Part shown: positions 26,294 to 44,228 of the stretch, piece by piece
Numbering within the stretch: the stretch's first letter is position 1
How the letters are laid out: every line of letters begins with the position of its first letter
Origin: Elusimicrobium minutum Pei191
Lineage (GTDB): Bacteria; Elusimicrobiota; Elusimicrobia; Elusimicrobiales; Elusimicrobiaceae
Direction: 5' to 3'
Assembly (NCBI RefSeq): GCF_000020145.1
Contig: NC_010644.1
Location: 620,001 to 684,000 of the forward strand
Length of the DNA stretch: 64,000 nt
Made by a program: the position numbers and the translations under genes
Notes under the pieces: model-generated
What the model saw: only the letters and a program-made list of their open reading frames with translations
Told to the model about the DNA's origin: nothing
Database searches by the model: none

Positions 26294-29200
26294 ATGGCCG
26301 AGAAAAAAGACAGCTTCACGTTTAGTGATAAGCTCAAGGACAGCAAACCTGCCCCTGCGCCTTTTTCTAAACGTTTTTCCGCCTCTAAATTAGGAACGGA
26401 CGGAAAGCCTAGAAAAACTTTTTTTGAAAGGACCAAAAGAGACGCGCCCTTCTTTATAGCGGCGTTAATTGTTCTCTTACTTTTACCTTTCTTTGTAAAG
26501 TTTACTGGGCCCGGAGGTTCGGATATAAACGATACCCCCGTTATAAAGGATGCTATAGCTTGGGGTGACCCGGTTTATGACACCTGTTTTGACGAATTTG
26601 GTAATGAAATAGACAATTGTTTATTACCGCAGGCAGGCAGAAGTTCCTTTGATTTGATTCCCAGGGACGCAGCGTCTGAAACTGCGGACGCTTTTGACGT
26701 TGACTATACTCCCTATAAAGGTGATTCCACGGATTCCTACAGAGAATCAGGTTCAAGATATACCGAGCCTGTGGTTGCTGACGCGCGCAGAGCGATGTCC
26801 GGCGCGGTCAGAAGGACTCCTACCCAAATCGGTAATTTTAGGCCTGGCTCTGCAGTTACTGCCAGAGGCCGCGTTGGCACCGGTTGGAGCGGTATTTCCG
26901 CTCAGGCCGCTAAAACAGGCCCCGGAGAAGTTGCAAGGGCTGCCAAACCTATTTCACTCCAGCCGCTTACCGCGGCAAATAAACTTGGCCGTTCAATGAC
27001 GGGTGAGGCTGCTTTGGCTGAAGCCGAAAGGTCATTAGGCGCCATGAATAAACGTGAAGCCATGCAGGCTTTAATGGACTCCCAGCTTGCTCCCACCGTT
27101 GTAGGCCGCGGCGGTTTAACCCCGGGCAGACAAGGCGCGGGCGTTGGTGGCGGCGGTATGCCCAGCAACAAATGGTCATACAAGGGTATGAAGCCCTGGT
27201 GGTGGGATTTGGAACAGAAAAAAGCTTGGGCCAAGTGGGAATACTGGTTTAAACTTTGGGCCGATCCTTTAAAAGCCATTGTTGACGCTTTCGTACCCAA
27301 GTTCGGCTGCTGTATCCTTACAGGCCAAGATGATTGCGAAGTTGATAAATTTTGGGGCACAAGAGCCGGTGATGGAACTGTAGGACAATGTAATGGTATT
27401 CCTAGTGACAAATGGGCGACATTATATGAGGAATGTTCAAAAAAATTAGGTACCCCCGACGCATGTAAAGATCCCTATCCCAGGAGATCTAAATTCCCTT
27501 CAAAAGCAAACTGTTGCAGGGATTCTTTGGGTGTTGTTAAGCAAGGTGAAACATGTAACTATCAAGAAGCCAAAGCTCCTACAAATGATTCTAACTTCTT
27601 ACAAGTAAGATTTAGAGATTGTTTTGGCTGGCAATCTAAGGGGGCGGGCTTAACATTAAAATGTTCAGCTGAAGGTGTTGATGATCCTTCCAAAGATCCT
27701 GAAATCGCGACATATGCGCAGCCCAGCGGCAAAGCCGAAAAATGGAATATCTACCAATATGTTGTTGTACAAAATATAACTATTGACGGCAAACCGTTGT
27801 GCGGTTCATTAGGGGCGGAAGCTTCTTCTGCGCCTGATAAAGCTGGCCTTAATACTGACAGCAGTGGAGGAGAATACCTTGACCAAGGTAATGACGCGCA
27901 GACCTCTAATCAAAAAGCTACAGTGTCTGCTACCGAAAACATTGTAGCCGGGCCGCAGTATGTTAAAGTTTCGCAGGATAAAAACTTAAAGACTAAAATG
28001 ACAAAAGAAGATGCCGCGAGATTGTCAGCACTTGCTCAAGGTTCGGGCCAGGCCGCAAGTAAAGAACATACTACAAGAGGAGTTGTTTTTGGCGAAGCCG
28101 GTAAGGATCTTACAAGCAATGACTGCGTAATATTTGTACGCGGCGGGCGCGATACCGTAAATGAGCATTGGATATTTAGGATTATGAAGGGTCAGCAGTC
28201 TAACCAGGGCAGAATATTTAGGGAAAATATGTTAAGGCAATACTTGCTTAACGATTTACTGCCCAGATTGTACGGCTGCAGCCCCGACGTTGAGTTTGAT
28301 ACAACTGGCTCGGATAATAAAGTTGAAGCTGCCGGTGATTTTGGAAGACAGCTTTCAACAAAAGAAGGTACTAAGAATAGAACTAACTTTGGTAAAGGTA
28401 CTTGCCGTGACTACTTAGGAAATATATTTGTTAAACATATAGGCGCGCTTGCTATGGAGCAGCCTTTAGCGGTTAACAGAACTGATATTAACGCTGCTTC
28501 AGGCGATTCTGTTAAAAACTCTTATATTCCTGACTTGCCTTTAACTTTTGTGGATTTCCACCAAAGGTTTGTATTACAAGAAGGTAATGACTTTAGAAAA
28601 ACTGTTCCTACTGTTACTAATATAACAAGAAAGAACGGTACAGCCATTACTTCGGAATGGTGTGAAATTAACAGAACCTTGGCTGCTTATAACGCCGCTG
28701 ACTATTGTGAAGATGCTTCAAACAATCTTTACATGAAAGCTCCTGACGGTACCGCAGGTAATAAAGTGGAACCTAAAGAAAAATCCCAAGCTATAAGAGC
28801 AGCTTTAGCCGGTAAAACTATAGAAAAATGTATTACACATATATCTTTCTATCCGGAAAAATATCAGGACCTTAAATGGAAGTTTGAAAGGGAAAATTAC
28901 CCTCGGTTAACGGAAGGTACTGATAATCCTGAAAACATTGGCAAATGTTGCTTAAAAGGTGAAGACTTAGTTGAGTTTAACATATACAACAAACAAGGCA
29001 TGTTAGTTTTTGGCCCTAGAGTGCATAATAAAAAATCAGAATCCGAGTCCGAGCATATTAAGAAAATATGCGGCACTGATAACATAACTAACCTTTGCCC
29101 CGGCGGTGAGTTTGATTATACGTTGCACAACTATAATGACAGGGCAAAACCCTTAGGATTACCTTTGGTTCGTATAGTCAACTTTGCCTCGCGCACAGCA

Positions 29201-30355
29201 CCTGAACCTTTTACATTTGAGATTACAGAGACAAAGAATACAAATAAAGGTTTTTGTTGTCTTGATTCAACAGATAATAAAGTTAAACTGCGTGTTGAAA
29301 CTTCTACTGGCGAAGCAGTGATTGACAATTATGCAGTGTCCGAAGCTGAACTCTCTATAGCTTGTGGCGGACAACAGGTAGAAATATGCAACGCGTTGGA
29401 TTACCAACTTTTTACAATAGACCAAGAAGGTAAACCGCAGGGTCCTTTAGGCAAATTTGTTAAATATAAGCTGGAAAGCTCTATGCCTAAATTTATTACA
29501 ACATTCCCCGGTCCTTCTCCGAAAAAAGGAACCTGTTGTAAGGATTCAAAAACCGATGTTGTTCAACTTATGATTGAAAACGTTTCCTATACGTTGAACA
29601 GCGATAAAGGTTATAGTGCACAGGATGTGGCAAATTTATGCCAAGGTCAAGAGAATACAACTTGCCCGTTCCAGGCTATTGAAGTTGACACTGTTCTTAA
29701 TACCGGGTTTACATTAAACAAATGGGAATTTAACAGGGGTCAAGGTTTAGTAACAAACTTTACTAAAGCACTTGTCCTTGCTGAATACCAAGCACAGACC
29801 GCAGGTAAGAACTTTGTTACCAGCCTTACTATAGAGGGACATACTGACTGGGCCGGTACTTATAAGTATAATATAGGTAAATTATCTGAAAACAGAGTTC
29901 AGGCTGTTAAGGATTTAATGAACCAAACTATTGCGGATAATTTTGTTAGAGATAATCCGCCTAACAGCTCTATAACTGTTGAAGAGTGGAATAAAGTTGT
30001 TGATATCGCTAATAATTATATTAGAGGTATAATCCTGTCCGCAACGGCAGTGCCTGTTGGTCCTGTTTATTGCCAGCAAGGCCTACCGCGTACTGTACAA
30101 TTATCTGACTTTGTACAGCAAGGAGACGGCAGGTTGAGATTATCCTCTTCAAAGGTAACAGATGCTCTTAGAGGTTCTGAAGATACTCGTTGTGAAGGCG
30201 ATCATGCCTCTATGTCGGAATGTCAAAATTGTAAACAGTCCGTTATTTTAATTAACGGTAAATTCGGGCAGAAATTACAACTTGATTTATCACCCCTTGT
30301 TTCTGCTTTAGATATAAGAACTACTGGGATTAGACAAGTAACAAGAACCAAATAG
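26294..30355 (+). CDS. Giant Cys-rich membrane-anchored protein with C-terminal OmpA-like domain
   Basis: 1353 residues; RBS AGGAGG. A basic N-terminus and one membrane helix (~51-70, FFIAALIVLLLLPFFVKF) predict an N-in anchor with the rest periplasmic. Residues ~75-300 are low-complexity. Cys pairs recur: FGCC (~337), ANCC, then three spaced units starting GKCC (885-886), GFCC (988-989) and GTCC (1081-1082), each 'CC-x-D/G...' followed by beta-rich sequence and two more Cys about 40-55 residues on. The last ~220 residues form an OmpA-like peptidoglycan-binding domain (IEGHTDWAGTYKYN from 1180, LSENRVQAV). The MotB-like topology suggests a scaffold tied to the cell wall. The Cys repeat is not one I recognise. 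Own promoter and terminator. Confidence 0.8.
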   Translation: MAEKKDSFTFSDKLKDSKPAPAPFSKRFSASKLGTDGKPRKTFFERTKRDAPFFIAALIVLLLLPFFVKFTGPGGSDINDTPVIKDAIAWGDPVYDTCFDEFGNEIDNCLLPQAGRSSFDLIPRDAASETADAFDVDYTPYKGDSTDSYRESGSRYTEPVVADARRAMSGAVRRTPTQIGNFRPGSAVTARGRVGTGWSGISAQAAKTGPGEVARAAKPISLQPLTAANKLGRSMTGEAALAEAERSLGAMNKREAMQALMDSQLAPTVVGRGGLTPGRQGAGVGGGGMPSNKWSYKGMKPWWWDLEQKKAWAKWEYWFKLWADPLKAIVDAFVPKFGCCILTGQDDCEVDKFWGTRAGDGTVGQCNGIPSDKWATLYEECSKKLGTPDACKDPYPRRSKFPSKANCCRDSLGVVKQGETCNYQEAKAPTNDSNFLQVRFRDCFGWQSKGAGLTLKCSAEGVDDPSKDPEIATYAQPSGKAEKWNIYQYVVVQNITIDGKPLCGSLGAEASSAPDKAGLNTDSSGGEYLDQGNDAQTSNQKATVSATENIVAGPQYVKVSQDKNLKTKMTKEDAARLSALAQGSGQAASKEHTTRGVVFGEAGKDLTSNDCVIFVRGGRDTVNEHWIFRIMKGQQSNQGRIFRENMLRQYLLNDLLPRLYGCSPDVEFDTTGSDNKVEAAGDFGRQLSTKEGTKNRTNFGKGTCRDYLGNIFVKHIGALAMEQPLAVNRTDINAASGDSVKNSYIPDLPLTFVDFHQRFVLQEGNDFRKTVPTVTNITRKNGTAITSEWCEINRTLAAYNAADYCEDASNNLYMKAPDGTAGNKVEPKEKSQAIRAALAGKTIEKCITHISFYPEKYQDLKWKFERENYPRLTEGTDNPENIGKCCLKGEDLVEFNIYNKQGMLVFGPRVHNKKSESESEHIKKICGTDNITNLCPGGEFDYTLHNYNDRAKPLGLPLVRIVNFASRTAPEPFTFEITETKNTNKGFCCLDSTDNKVKLRVETSTGEAVIDNYAVSEAELSIACGGQQVEICNALDYQLFTIDQEGKPQGPLGKFVKYKLESSMPKFITTFPGPSPKKGTCCKDSKTDVVQLMIENVSYTLNSDKGYSAQDVANLCQGQENTTCPFQAIEVDTVLNTGFTLNKWEFNRGQGLVTNFTKALVLAEYQAQTAGKNFVTSLTIEGHTDWAGTYKYNIGKLSENRVQAVKDLMNQTIADNFVRDNPPNSSITVEEWNKVVDIANNYIRGIILSATAVPVGPVYCQQGLPRTVQLSDFVQQGDGRLRLSSSKVTDALRGSEDTRCEGDHASMSECQNCKQSVILINGKFGQKLQLDLSPLVSALDIRTTGIRQVTRTK

Positions 30356-30378: not shown

Positions 30379-30409
30379 ACCCCCGGGCTTAAACCCGGGG
30401 GTTTTTTTT
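30379..30409 (+). terminator. Terminator of the giant gene
   Basis: ACCCCCGGG (30379-30387) pairs with CCCGGGGGT (30394-30402), then eight T. Its T-run merges with the start of the left REP repeat. Confidence 0.92.
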
Positions 30410-30440
30410 GGGACACCGCCCCCGGCCCCTTGTCCCAAAA
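30406..30440 (+). repeat. REP-like palindromic repeat, left copy
   Basis: A 35-base imperfect palindrome beginning TTTTGGGACA and ending TGTCCCAAAA around a C-rich core. It is the inverted counterpart (34 of 35 bases) of the copy at 31203-31237 that overlaps the end of the transposase gene. Confidence 0.88.
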
Positions 30441-30463
30441 CTTGTTATATTGTAATATTGGGT

Positions 30464-31240
30464 ATGCCTAGAAAATTAAGAGAAGTAAGCAAAACATCTG
30501 TTTACCATGTTATGATACGCGGTGTTAACCGTCAAAATATTTTTGAAGAAGAAAGTGATTATGTTAAATTTTTAAATATTTTAAAAGATATTCAGGCGGC
30601 AAATAATTTTGTTGTTTACGCGTATTGTTTTATGCCTAATCATTTGCATATGTTAATAAAAGATGATTCTTTAAGTAAAACTATGCAGGTTTTATTAGGA
30701 AAGTACGCTTCTTTTTATAATTTAAAATATGACAGAACAGGTTATTTGTTTCAGGACAGGTTTAAAAGCGAAGCCGTTGAAAATGATTCTTACTTTTTAA
30801 CGGTATTAAGATATATACACCAAAATCCCGTGTCCGCAGGTCTTGCGCAGGATGTTACCTCCTACCGTTGGAGCAGTATGTATGAATACATGTCAAAGCC
30901 GTTTATTGTATCGGCAAGTCACACTCTTAAAATGTTTAAAAATAATATTTCATCATTCATTTCTTTTAATAAGGAAAAGAGGGAAGTTAAATCGCCGCAT
31001 TTAAAAATAAAGAAAGAACAAAAAATATCAGATTCCAATATACAAAAATTTATTAAGAACGAATTAAATATTAGCGCGGGTGAAATAAAAAGTTTAGATA
31101 TTGAAAAATTGGCAAAAACATTAAAACAACTTAGTGAAAAAGGGGCAAGCGTACGCCAGCTTCAACGTGTAACGGGTATATCCAAATCATCCGTAGCCCG
31201 CTTTTTGGGACAAGGGGCCGGGGGCAGTGTCCCAAAATAG
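30464..31240 (+). CDS. REP-associated tyrosine transposase (RAYT, IS200-like Y1 family)
   Basis: 258 residues; ATG at 30464 chosen (a TTG two codons earlier is possible; no strong ribosome-binding site either way). The HUH motif is NHLHML (His60, His62); the catalytic Tyr is in KYASFYNLKY (Tyr81 or Tyr85), followed by the family signature RTGYLFQDRFKSEAVE and YIHQNPVSAGL. The C-terminus has a helix-turn-helix (VRQLQRVTGISKSSVARFLG). Such proteins nick and join single-stranded REP hairpins. The gene is bracketed by inverted REP-like repeats, and its last 12 codons lie inside the right repeat. It ends one base before the convergent uvrA stop. Confidence 0.92.
   Translation: MPRKLREVSKTSVYHVMIRGVNRQNIFEEESDYVKFLNILKDIQAANNFVVYAYCFMPNHLHMLIKDDSLSKTMQVLLGKYASFYNLKYDRTGYLFQDRFKSEAVENDSYFLTVLRYIHQNPVSAGLAQDVTSYRWSSMYEYMSKPFIVSASHTLKMFKNNISSFISFNKEKREVKSPHLKIKKEQKISDSNIQKFIKNELNISAGEIKSLDIEKLAKTLKQLSEKGASVRQLQRVTGISKSSVARFLGQGAGGSVPK
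31203..31237 (-). repeat. REP-like palindromic repeat, right copy
   Basis: Inverted copy of 30406-30440 with one difference. It encodes the last residues of the transposase (GQGAGGSVPK) and abuts the 3' end of uvrA. Confidence 0.88.
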
Positions 31241-34072
31241 TTATTTCATTTCTTCTTTTAAATATTTACCCGTGTAAGAGTTTTTTGCTTTGCTAATATC
31301 TTGAGGTGTGCCTTCCGCCACCAAATAACCGCCTTTATCGCCGCCTTCGGGGCCGAGGTCTATAATCCAGTCGGCTGTTTTAATAATATCAAGGTTATGT
31401 TCTATAACCAAAATAGTATTACCTGCGCCTGAAAGCCTGTGTAGTACGCTTAAAAGTTTGTCAATATCTGCAAAATGGAGGCCTGTGGTGGGTTCGTCTA
31501 AAATATATAAAGTTTTGCCCGTGGCCCTGCGGCTTAGCTCGTGGGCAAGTTTAACGCGCTGCGCCTCACCGCCGGATAATGTTGTGGCGCTTTGTCCCAG
31601 TTTAATATAACCTAAACCAACATCGTCAAGCGTTTGTATAACTTTTTTGATTTTAGGGATAGTGTCAAAAAATTCCAAAGCCTGGCTTACGCTCATTTCC
31701 AGCACATCGGCTATACTTTTTCCTTTATAATGCACTGCAAGAGTATCCTCATTAAAACGTTTGCCGTTGCATTCCTCGCACTTTACGTAAATGTCGGGCA
31801 AAAACTGCATTTGAATTTTTATAATGCCGTCGCCCTCGCATTTTTCGCACCTGCCGCCTTTTACGTTAAAGGAAAACCTGCCCTGCGCAAAACCGCGGCG
31901 TTTTGCCTCAGGCATTTCGGCAAATAATTCCCTTATATGCGTAAAAACGCCCGTGTATGTGGCGGGGTTGGAGCGAGGGGTTTTGCCAATGGGGGTTTGG
32001 TCTACAATAACAACTTTGTCAATATTTTCCAACCCTTTTATGTTTTTGTGCTTACCCGGTAAATCCTTGGCGTGGTAAAATTTTTGGGCTATTTCTTTAT
32101 AAAGGATTTGGTGTATTAATGTTGACTTGCCCGAGCCCGACACCCCCGTCACGCAAACAAATAAACCTAAAGGTATTTTAACGTTGATATTTTTTAGGTT
32201 AAATTGTTCCGCGCCCGAAATTTCAATATATTTGCCGTTTGGCTTTTTCGGGTTAAGGTTAGGGGCTATTTTAAGCTCGCCGCTTAAATATTTAGCGGTT
32301 ATTGCGTTTTTATCTTTTAAAAATTCTTTCAAACTTCCTTCAGCTACAATTTTGCCGCCGTGCTCACCCGCCTTGGGGCCAATTTCAATAACATGGTCGG
32401 CCGCTAAAATAGTGTCTTTATCATGTTCAACAATAATAAGAGTGTTGTCTAAATCGCGCAGATTTTTAAGCGTTTCGATAAGTTTGTCATTATCACGGCT
32501 GTGAAGGCCTATTGTAGGCTCGTCAAGCACATAAAGCACACCCGTCAGCCCGCTGCCTATTTGCGTGGCTAAGTGTATACGCTGAGATTCCCCGCCCGAG
32601 AGTGTTTGGCTTTTACGGTTAAGCGTAAGGTAGCTTAAACCCACGCTGTTTAAAAAGCCAAGCCTGCTTTTAATTTCTTTAATAACGTCTTTTGAAATTA
32701 TTTTTTCCTTATCATTAAACTCAAGTCCGGCAATCCATTTAATGGCTTCGCCCACTTGCATTTCCGTTACTTTAGATATATTTAGCCCGCCTACATGCAC
32801 GGCAAGCGCTTCAGCCTTTAATCTGGCGCCGTGGCATACGGGGCAGGTAACCTCACGCATATATCTGTTGTAAATTTCTTCACGCACAAAGTCTGATTCC
32901 GACTCCGCGTGCCTTCTGTTTAAATTGCCTATAACGCCTTCAAACTCACTTTCATTTGTAGCCCAGGAGGCTTTATAGGTAGTGCCGTTGCCGCCGTAAA
33001 GAACAATGTTTCTTTGCGCTTTTGTAAGCTTATTCCACGGTACGCCCATGGGTATTTTGTTTTTGCGGCAAACCTGTTTTAAAATATCATAATAATAACC
33101 AGCCCAGCCGTTTTTCCAACGGTTGGTGCGTGTTGTAACGGGGGAGTCCCAGGCGGCGATAGCGCCTTCGTTTAAAGTAAGCGAAGGGTCCGGCACTACA
33201 AGGTCCTCGGCTACTTCGATTTTAATGCCTAAACCGTTACATTCGGGGCAGGCGCCGTAAGGCGTGTTAAAGGAAAATAATCTTGGTTCCAATTCGCTAA
33301 AACCTATACCGCATTTTGCGCAGGCGTTATTTTCACTGTAAGTAAAGTGTTGTTTTGCGTCCGCGTTAAAAACCGATACCAACCCTTTTGAATATTTTAC
33401 GGCGGTTTCTATAGAGTCTGTTAAACGTTCCTTTTCAAGCGCGTCGACAAAAACTTCGTCCACAACAATTTCAATAGTGTGTTTTTTGTATCTTTCTAAT
33501 ACGGGCGCCGTGTCTAATTTAGAAATAACGCCATTAACCCGTACTTTTACAAAGCCGTCTTTTTTGAGTTTTGCAAAAAGTTCCTCATAAGTTCCTGTTC
33601 TGCCCTGTACTATGGGGGAAAGTATAAAAACGGTTTGGTTATTAAACTTTTTTAAAATATCAGAAGTTATAGCGTGCACGCTCCAGGATTCAACTTCCTG
33701 CCCGCACTGCGGGCAATGGCGGTGGCCCACGCGCGCGTAAAGCAGGCGCAGATAGTCATAAATTTCCGTTACTGTTGATACTGTGGAACGCGGGTTTTTG
33801 CTTGGGTTACGCTGCTCAATAGATATAGCGGGGGAAAGGCCGTCAATGTGTTCCACGTCGGGCTTTTCCATAAGATCCAAAAATTGCCTGGCGTAAGCGG
33901 ACATGGATTCAACATATCTTCTTTGCCCCTCGGCGTAAATTGTGTCAAACGCAAGTGAACTTTTACCCGAACCCGAGAGTCCTGTTATTACAACCATTTT
34001 TCCGCGCGGAATATCTACCGAAATGTTTTTTAAGTTATGGCTTTTGGCGCCTTTTATTTTTATAAATTGCAT
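31241..34072 (-). CDS. uvrA: Excinuclease ABC subunit A (UvrA)
   Basis: 943 residues, full length. Damage-recognition ATPase of nucleotide excision repair. The first Walker A is GLSGSGKSS (~31-39) and the second GVSGSGKST; both LSGGE signatures are present ([26 protein letters not shown]). Zinc-finger cysteines are seen as CPQCG, CAKC...CPEC and CEKCEGDG...CEECNGKR. The start [17 protein letters not shown] is typical. The gene stops immediately next to the transposase/REP element, so insertion at this site did not shorten the protein. Confidence 0.97.
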
Positions 34073-42616: not shown

Positions 42617-42641
42617 TTTTATCTCAGATAAAAATCCAAAT

Positions 42642-42676
42642 TTTTGGGACACTGCCCCCGGCCCCTTGTCCCATAA
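42642..42676 (+). repeat. Solitary REP-like repeat, third copy
   Basis: Same 35-base palindrome as 30406-30440, with two differences and the same orientation. No transposase lies beside it. The ~30 AT-rich bases after it loosely resemble those after the left copy, so it may be a dispersed REP or the remnant of a second element. Confidence 0.8.
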
Positions 42677-42704
42677 ATTGATATGTTATGGTATTTTGAA
42701 AGTT

Positions 42705-44228
42705 TTATTTGTTAAGTTCTTTTAAAAACTTGTCTAAAGCCTTGTCACCTTCGGGCGTTTGCTTAAAAACGCCGCAGCATTCTAAGACTTTTGCGAATAC
42801 TTTACCGGTTTCTTCCCGTAAAATATTTTCAGCGTTTTTTGCCGTAAACTTATGTTTGAAATAAATTTCTTTCGCCCATTCATAATGGTTTTCAATAGAG
42901 GGGGATTTTTTTATTTTTTCCAAATTTCCGTTAATTAGGCAATCGCCAATTTCTTTAAGAGCTTCTTTTAAACGGCCCGGCAAAATGGCCATGCCCATGA
43001 CCTCAATAAGGCCTATATTTTCACGTTTTATATGGTGAAATTCAGGGCACGAGTGAAAAATACCGTCAGGATATTTGGCCGAAGTGCGGTTATTTCTTAA
43101 GGCTAGATCCATTTGCAATTTTTTGCCGTTCATTTTTGCCATTGGCGTAACGGTATTATGCCTTTTTTTGCCTGTGTGCGATTTTATTTTGGCGTTTTCG
43201 TCAGAATACTTTATCCATTTATCAAAAATATGTTTTGAGGCGGCTAAAACATCTTTTTTATTTCCTGTAAGCCTTATCACGCTTAAAGGCCAGTTAAGCG
43301 TGGCGCATTTTAAAGAAGGCCACTTTTTTAATTTAAAGGTTTTGCGTTCTTTTGCCTTATGCATGGGGAAAGTGTATAAACCGCCCTGGTAGTGGTCATG
43401 GTTTAGTATAGAGCCGCCCACTATAGGTAAATCAGCGTTTGAACCTATAAAATAATGCGGAAACTTGGAAAGAAAGTCGCCCAAGCGTTCAAACGTTTTA
43501 TGGTCTATTAACATATTTTCATGTTTCTGCCCTAGTACTATGCAGTGCTGGTTATAATAAACGTAGGGAGAGTATTGGAGGTACCAGGTTTCGCCGGAAA
43601 GGTTAAGCGGAATTAAACGGATATTTTGCCTTGCCGGGTGGTTTAAACGCCCTGCGTAACCTTCATTTTCATAACACAAAAGACATTTGGGATAAATATG
43701 GGTGTGCAAAGCCGCCGCGCCCATTGTTTTAAGAAGGGCTATTTCTTTAGGGTCCTTTTCCGGTTTTGATAAATTAACCGTTATATCAAGCGCTCCGTAT
43801 TTTGTGCGTGTTTTCCAGGAAAGATTTTTTGCCACTCTTTCCGTTTTAATATAGTTGGCCTGTTCCTGTTTTTTATACATCCAGTCCGTGGCGGCTTTAA
43901 TACCGCGCTGTTTTTTTATTTTATTAAAAGAAATAATAAAATCAGAAGGACGCTGTATTAAAATGCCCATTATTTTAGTTTCAAGCATTTCACGGTAAAC
44001 AGGTAAATCCTGAATTAGTTTTTGCGTAACAGCCCAGTCGGAAATTTCAGCCAAAATCTTACCCGGATATTTTGGCAAAGCCGTTTTTACTTTCTGAGGT
44101 TCAAAACTGTCCAAATTTAAAACGGCGGCAATTTGGTTGGCAGCCCAAACTTTATCTTCCTTGGAGATAAGGCCGTTTTGCCCGGCGTAATTGAGTAAGA
44201 TTTGAATATGTTTATTAATATCAGTCAT
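42705..44228 (-). CDS. galT: UDP-glucose-hexose-1-phosphate uridylyltransferase (class II GalT)
   Basis: 507 residues from the ATG at 44228 (AAGGAAAT upstream; shares bases with the galE stop, TAATG); an upstream ATG at 44252 is inside galE. Length and motifs (YSPYVYYNQHCIVLG, GSNADLPIVGGSILNHDHYQGG, FPMHKAKE) are of the Firmicutes-type class II GalT, about 150 residues longer than E. coli GalT. It exchanges galactose 1-phosphate for glucose 1-phosphate on UDP, with the catalytic His in NHDHYQGG. It pairs with galE and galK in the Leloir pathway. Confidence 0.93.
   Translation of the reverse strand: MTDINKHIQILLNYAGQNGLISKEDKVWAANQIAAVLNLDSFEPQKVKTALPKYPGKILAEISDWAVTQKLIQDLPVYREMLETKIMGILIQRPSDFIISFNKIKKQRGIKAATDWMYKKQEQANYIKTERVAKNLSWKTRTKYGALDITVNLSKPEKDPKEIALLKTMGAAALHTHIYPKCLLCYENEGYAGRLNHPARQNIRLIPLNLSGETWYLQYSPYVYYNQHCIVLGQKHENMLIDHKTFERLGDFLSKFPHYFIGSNADLPIVGGSILNHDHYQGGLYTFPMHKAKERKTFKLKKWPSLKCATLNWPLSVIRLTGNKKDVLAASKHIFDKWIKYSDENAKIKSHTGKKRHNTVTPMAKMNGKKLQMDLALRNNRTSAKYPDGIFHSCPEFHHIKRENIGLIEVMGMAILPGRLKEALKEIGDCLINGNLEKIKKSPSIENHYEWAKEIYFKHKFTAKNAENILREETGKVFAKVLECCGVFKQTPEGDKALDKFLKELNK

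What the first reader, a model, noticed from the sequence alone, without database searches (positions are those of the whole stretch)
30406..31240. RAYT flanked by inverted REP-like hairpins, right repeat coding for the protein's C-terminus
The two 35-base palindromes differ at one position and bracket the gene exactly, and the right one supplies the last codons. RAYT/REP systems are best known from Proteobacteria. A self-bounded unit like this is a simple case in which the transposase and its substrate are one cassette.
Basis: partly seen in the sequence, partly recalled or inferred. Interest (0 to 1): 0.6.

Follow-up and report, generated by a model that had tools for sequence, protein, structure and literature searches.

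The report
RAYT-type transposase cassette in Elusimicrobium
A small bacterial "jumping gene" sits between two mirror-image DNA hairpins that mark its ends; it is an ordinary but well-delimited member of a known transposase family that probably reached this gut bacterium by horizontal transfer and left three extra hairpin copies elsewhere in the genome.

Summary
Two 35-bp hairpins (30406-30440 and 31203-31237, 34/35 complementary) bracket a Y1/HUH transposase ORF (30464-31240), and the right one encodes residues 247-258; the stop follows at once. The genome (1,643,562 bp, one contig; the size I recall for Elusimicrobium minutum) has one such transposase and five copies of the hairpin: two flank the gene, three are single and extragenic. 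There are no doublets (REPINs). Two congeners lack the hairpin; in one, the orthologous convergent gene pair is adjacent with only a terminator between, an empty site. The protein falls in a Bacillota/Bacteroidota clade, not with other Elusimicrobiota homologues, so horizontal transfer is likely. Relatives carry inverted terminal repeats sharing the core GACAAGGGG(A/C)CGGGG. In Petroclostridium, seven near-identical copies end at those repeats amid unrelated flanks, so there the repeat-bounded unit is mobile. Best filing: a TIRtron/TIRYT-type element (Di Nocera 2013; TnpA-REP subclass 2.1) with hairpin ends that also exist as solo, REP-like copies; not a GTAG REPtron. The hairpins' G-rich strand points opposite to that in relatives with a comparable core. 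The repeat-encoded C-terminus is a low-confidence tail, and such 3' overlap recurs in relatives. A known kind, with a few oddities.

The parts
30379..30409 (+). Intrinsic terminator of the upstream gene with its T-run; the element begins inside or right after the T-run (insertion point)
   Evidence: the same terminator-then-uvrA arrangement without element in congener G295
30406..30440 (+). Left terminal hairpin repeat TTTTGGGACACCGCCCCCGGCCCCTTGTCCCAAAA
30464..31240 (+). Y1/HUH single-strand transposase, 258 aa: HUH motif N59-H60-L-H62, conserved Y117 (RYIHQNP), C-terminal helix-turn-helix about 213-247
31203..31237 (+). Right terminal hairpin repeat, inverted copy of the left; encodes residues 247-258
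31241..34072 (-). uvrA, convergent; its stop codon abuts the transposase stop codon (right flank of the insertion)
26294..30355 (+). 1353-aa protein, left flank of the insertion; its orthologue in congener G295 directly faces uvrA
42642..42676 (+). Solo hairpin copy between a pilin-like gene and the gene ending at 42705; about 20 bp on its inner side weakly resemble the transposase leader (possible decayed left end)

Best explanation
This is a horizontally acquired, hairpin-ended insertion element of the TnpA-REP/TIRYT type. The encoded Y1 transposase (HUH plus one catalytic tyrosine, C-terminal HTH) most likely binds its terminal hairpins as folded single strands, nicks next to them through a tyrosine-DNA link and moves the 0.83-kb unit, or occasionally one end alone. 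In this genome the element inserted between the terminator T-run of the upstream gene and the stop codon of uvrA, and three solo end copies were left in other intergenic regions. The right end overlaps the gene and adds a probably dispensable tail. Shown: anatomy, repeat family, empty locus in a congener, protein clade, predicted fold, and repeat-delimited mobility in Petroclostridium relatives. Inferred: cleavage and strand transfer at these hairpins, mobility in this species, and the origin of the solo copies.
For: Y1_Tnp 3.4e-15; H60, Y117 and N59 invariant in 35 homologues, H62 in 90% or more; AlphaFold model mean pLDDT 89.9 with top solved match 4er8, RAYT bound to a REP hairpin, E 5.9e-8, TMt 0.74. 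Weak HTH matches at 213-249. One Y1_Tnp in the genome, five hairpins. Neither congener has the hairpin; G182 has no transposase match, and only uvrA matches in both. Orthologous pair faces itself across a terminator in G295. Protein lies inside a 40-row Bacillota/Bacteroidota clade, support 98/99, apart from 28 Elusimicrobiota homologues. Inverted terminal repeats in most relatives. Repeat core matches clostridial ends above shuffles. Seven Petroclostridium copies 97-100% identical, bounded by the repeats, unrelated flanks. ORF G+C 32.8% against 39.8% for the window.
Against: Only one full copy and five repeats, so activity in this species is not shown. The repeats' strand polarity is opposite to that of relatives, so direct descent of both ends from the clostridial type is not simple. 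No GTAG head. The NCBIfam RAYT model scores 71.1, under its cut-off of 80. Closest protein identity is only 45-46%. The congeners are MAGs (88% and 66% complete), so absence elsewhere in them is not certain.
Confidence: 0.82

Rival explanations
1. Classic REPtron: a GTAG-type RAYT that maintains a population of REPs/REPINs, as in Pseudomonas or E. coli.
For: Hairpin repeats in inverted orientation at both ends of a Y1 transposase, plus solo extragenic copies; nearest fold is the RAYT-REP complex.
Against: No GTAG at the repeats apart from one probably chance GTAG inside the coding sequence near the right repeat; five copies, none paired apart from the two around the gene; protein groups with Bacillota TIR-type elements having a C-terminal HTH.
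Confidence: 0.08
2. The hairpins are ordinary transcription terminators or attenuators that happen to flank the gene.
For: Stable stems at 3' ends of genes; the right one lies at a convergent junction.
Against: No U-run follows the stem on either strand, and the terminator scan does not call them; a separate strong terminator precedes the left hairpin. Five near-identical loops including non-pairing bases, absent in congeners.
Confidence: 0.04
3. A domesticated or dead transposase kept for another role, the repeats being regulatory targets.
For: Single copy, no recent duplicates; TnpA-REP proteins are called domesticated in the literature (PMC8266576).
Against: Absent at the locus in both congeners, patchy gain, low G+C, terminal repeats intact; relatives are multicopy. 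Nothing points to a host function.
Confidence: 0.06

Closest known systems
TIRtrons / TIRYT (TIR-associated tyrosine transposases), Di Nocera et al. 2013, PMC3733652
   Same: Y1 transposase flanked by inverted repeats, GGGGAC-type motif, self-complementary TIRs and small TIR families reported, 3' overlap of TIR and gene reported
   Different: Here the TIR is a 35-bp hairpin with solo copies, and the G-rich strand is on the opposite side relative to the gene; Elusimicrobiota are not mentioned in that paper's text
TnpA-REP subclass 2.1 (PMC6006769)
   Same: C-terminal HTH extension, TIR association
   Different: That survey found no REP-like sequences next to subclass 2.1 genes; here the ends are clear hairpins
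GTAG REPtrons (RAYT + REP; Nunvar 2010, PMC2817692)
   Same: Gene flanked by two inverted palindromic repeats, solo extragenic copies, RAYT fold (4er8)
   Different: No GTAG head, 5 copies instead of usually >100, no REPIN/BIME arrangement
IS200/IS605 (IS608, ISDra2)
   Same: Y1 HUH fold, hairpin-dependent single-strand chemistry expected
   Different: Full inverted terminal repeats and a C-terminal HTH; weaker fold match than 4er8

Membership tests
TIRtron / TIRYT | RAYT-like Y1 transposase with HUH motif and catalytic Tyr | tested here: met
TIRtron / TIRYT | Flanked by inverted repeats on both sides | tested here: met
TIRtron / TIRYT | GGGGWSAS-type motif in the upstream TIR (present in many, not all, members) | tested here: inconclusive
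   Core GACAAGGGGCCGGGG matches relatives' TIRs but on the opposite strand; the outer arm reads TGGGACAC, 7/8 to the motif
TIRtron / TIRYT | C-terminal HTH (subclass 2.1) | tested here: met
   Several HTH models match 213-249 weakly, below curated cut-offs; helices 213-247 in the model
GTAG REPtron | GTAG (or GTGG) head directly 5' of the palindrome | tested here: not met
   for the three copies in the window; the other two read by eye
GTAG REPtron | Abundant REPs, often paired (REPIN/BIME) | tested here: not met
   5 copies, 3 of them single
IS200/IS605 | Transposes as ssDNA without target duplication, next to a fixed short target | not testable with these tools
   Needs in vitro cleavage or insertion mapping; the empty-site comparison is with a congener only (uvrA 75% DNA identity)
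Mobile unit bounded by the repeats | Several copies with sequence identity ending at the repeats, in unrelated sites | tested here: inconclusive
   Met for Petroclostridium relatives; only one full copy in this genome

The most novel reading that the evidence does not exclude
The terminal hairpins are the clostridial-type ends with their loop turned round relative to the gene, meaning that the transposase of this lineage reads the symmetric stem arms and not the G-rich loop strand (or reads the other strand). Together with the truncated tandem copies seen beside relatives' ends, this would make the TIR-to-REP transition a visible process: ends being copied on their own, first beside the element and later as dispersed solo hairpins.
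Probability: 0.2. Interest if true: 0.5.

Novelty: new member of a known kind. Interest (0 to 1): 0.33.

Why it matters
It gives a compact, single-copy, single-transposase example outside Proteobacteria of a cassette whose ends also occur as a few solo hairpins. It lies between TIR-bounded elements that move as units and REP families that spread as hairpins, so the question of how REPs arise from transposon ends could be tested with one protein and five DNA sites. In itself it is a modest finding.

Tried and rejected
Terminator reading: rejected (and no repeats in congeners). GTAG REPtron: rejected on head motif and copy pattern. Phage or plasmid origin: no close relative in phages (one hit at 25%), plasmids (best-ranked hit 34%) or viral contigs (none). 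Descent from other Elusimicrobiota copies: not supported by the tree. An early idea that the Alkaliphilus relative's right repeat lies inside its ORF was wrong: the ORF stops 5' of it once read properly; real 3' overlaps are in L026, L030 and Petroclostridium. Same-strand alignment of the hairpin with clostridial TIRs gives nothing above shuffles. A promoter with its -35 box in the hairpin arm (TTGTCC-17-TAATAT) did not pass the scan's threshold and is not claimed. No relative was found by sequence in the PDB; the fold match came only from the model.

Full report
OBSERVATION. The two repeats and the ORF are as described. The arms 30406-30440 and 31203-31237 are 35 nt, differ at one position, and lie 762 nt apart. 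Each forms a 10-bp stem, TTTTGGGACA/TGTCCCAAAA, with a 15-nt G/C-rich loop that can form a short inner stem. The window's 64 kb holds three matches to GGGACA-N5..33-TGTCCC against 0.04 expected. The right repeat encodes residues 247-258 and the TAG stop follows directly; uvrA's stop codon on the other strand is the next three bases.

GENOME-WIDE. The genome is one contig of 1,643,562 bases, 97% complete; from memory that is the size of Elusimicrobium minutum Pei191. The 27-bp core occurs five times with up to three mismatches, reversed control zero: the two around the gene, and single copies at 662646, 783317 and 812623. The exact loop 12-mer occurs only at these five places, so I found no truncated copies. 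The single copies lie between genes. At the position just inside the stem the five copies read C/T three times, C/G once and G/C once, a small hint that pairing is kept. There is one Y1 transposase. Hence single repeats, no REPIN doublets.

THE SITE WAS EMPTY. Congeners G182 and G295 contain no GGGACA-N13..17-TGTCCC hairpin; their uvrA is 75% identical at DNA level up to its 3' end, and nothing of the element aligns. No transposase was found in G182. In G295 the orthologue of the 1353-aa upstream protein (46% over 544 residues) faces uvrA, and between them is only a terminator whose T-run meets the uvrA stop codon. In the window that T-run is followed by the element and then uvrA's stop codon. 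So the unit was most likely inserted between the terminator and uvrA. In G182 the two genes also converge but other DNA lies between them. The solo copy beside the gene after tRNA-Leu (812623) is likewise missing from the matching region of G182.

THE PROTEIN. Pfam Y1_Tnp 3.4e-15; NCBIfam REP-associated tyrosine transposase 71.1 bits, below its cut-off of 80. H60, N59 and Y117 are invariant among 35 homologues and H62 nearly so. The model (mean pLDDT 89.9) matches RAYT bound to a REP hairpin, 4er8, best (E 5.9e-8), then IS200/IS605 transposases. Residues 213-249 give weak HTH matches. The repeat-encoded tail has low confidence (last block mean 52), while the HTH is above 90. In relatives the protein usually ends about where the repeat begins here.

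RELATIVES. Full-length relatives at 34-46% identity are mostly Bacillota, with a few Bacteroidota. The tree places the protein in a 40-row clade of these (98/99), while 24 of the 28 Elusimicrobiota homologues lie in another group and four more (family f15) on a separate branch. The gene has 32.8% G+C against 39.8% for the window. Horizontal acquisition is the simple reading; the donor is not identified. Phage, plasmid and viral collections held nothing close.

ENDS IN RELATIVES. Most relatives have inverted terminal repeats, as a rule 50-190 bp upstream of the start and within about 100 bp of the stop, with cores such as GTGACAAGGGGACGGGGTTATTGACAC. In Petroclostridium sp. X23, seven full copies of 97-100% identity start at GTATATGGGGACG and end just after CGTCCCTAAG amid unrelated flanks. 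There the TIR-bounded unit is mobile, and all TIR hits belong to elements, a truncated copy or end duplications, with no dispersed solos. In that element, too, the right TIR supplies the last codons and the stop.

POLARITY. Read on its G-rich strand, the Elusimicrobium repeat matches clostridial upstream TIRs well beyond shuffles (scores 13-19 against shuffle maxima of 8-11 in many loci; L020 almost end to end), but only on the strand opposite to the gene; same-strand alignment is at shuffle level. The ends here therefore point the other way. Turning of the loop between the symmetric 10-bp arms could do it; this is inference.

MECHANISM. By analogy with characterised TnpA-REP proteins, which recognise folded single-stranded REP and not its inverse, and cleave at a dinucleotide 5' or 3' of the hairpin (PMC8266576), the protein should bind one strand of each terminal hairpin, cut beside it through Tyr117 and rejoin. 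GTAG, which takes part in recognition and cleavage-site choice in those systems, is absent here, so cleavage-site choice must differ. None of the chemistry is shown here.

FILING. It best fits the TIRtron/TIRYT kind (PMC3733652) and subclass 2.1 of TnpA-REP (PMC6006769). It fails two REPtron tests (GTAG, abundance/pairing). It is a new member with minor peculiarities: hairpin ends with solo copies and reversed polarity.

SIDE OBSERVATION. In relatives, mostly clostridial, the outer flank often carries truncated tandem copies of the adjacent end: 20 of 46 right flanks and 10 of 38 left flanks contain a longer match to their own end than any of 100 shuffles, where about 1% would be expected (related loci are not independent). 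The Elusimicrobium element shows none.

Noticed in passing
L010, L011, L013, L017, L024, L027, L028, L029, L038, L040, L041, L044 and others, immediate outer flanks of the terminal repeats: Truncated tandem copies ('stutter') of the element ends beside clostridial RAYT-like elements, ending at the same outer terminus in the arrays read by eye; possibly a record of single-end copying. I did not search the literature for it specifically.
   Followed up: partly
L052 (Agathobacter ruminis): A relative with a 99-bp inverted repeat around the transposase, itself containing several GGGGAC-type palindromic stretches.
   Followed up: no
window 42641-42695: The solo hairpin is followed by about 20 bp weakly resembling the transposase leader (55 bp at 85%): possibly a decayed left end of a former copy.
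   Followed up: partly
G298:C1:4807324-4807592 (L151): Left-end fragment of the Petroclostridium element, breaking off inside the transposase gene into unrelated sequence.
   Followed up: no
window 30379-31243: The insertion separates uvrA from a terminator that in congener G295 lies directly at its 3' end; uvrA read-through would be antisense to the transposase gene. Possible silencing, not tested.
   Followed up: no
L089, L094, L099 (Elusimicrobiota of the same order): Other Y1 transposases of the order carry short palindromic flanking repeats such as AAAAGGTGCCAGGCACCTTTT, a different family.
   Followed up: no
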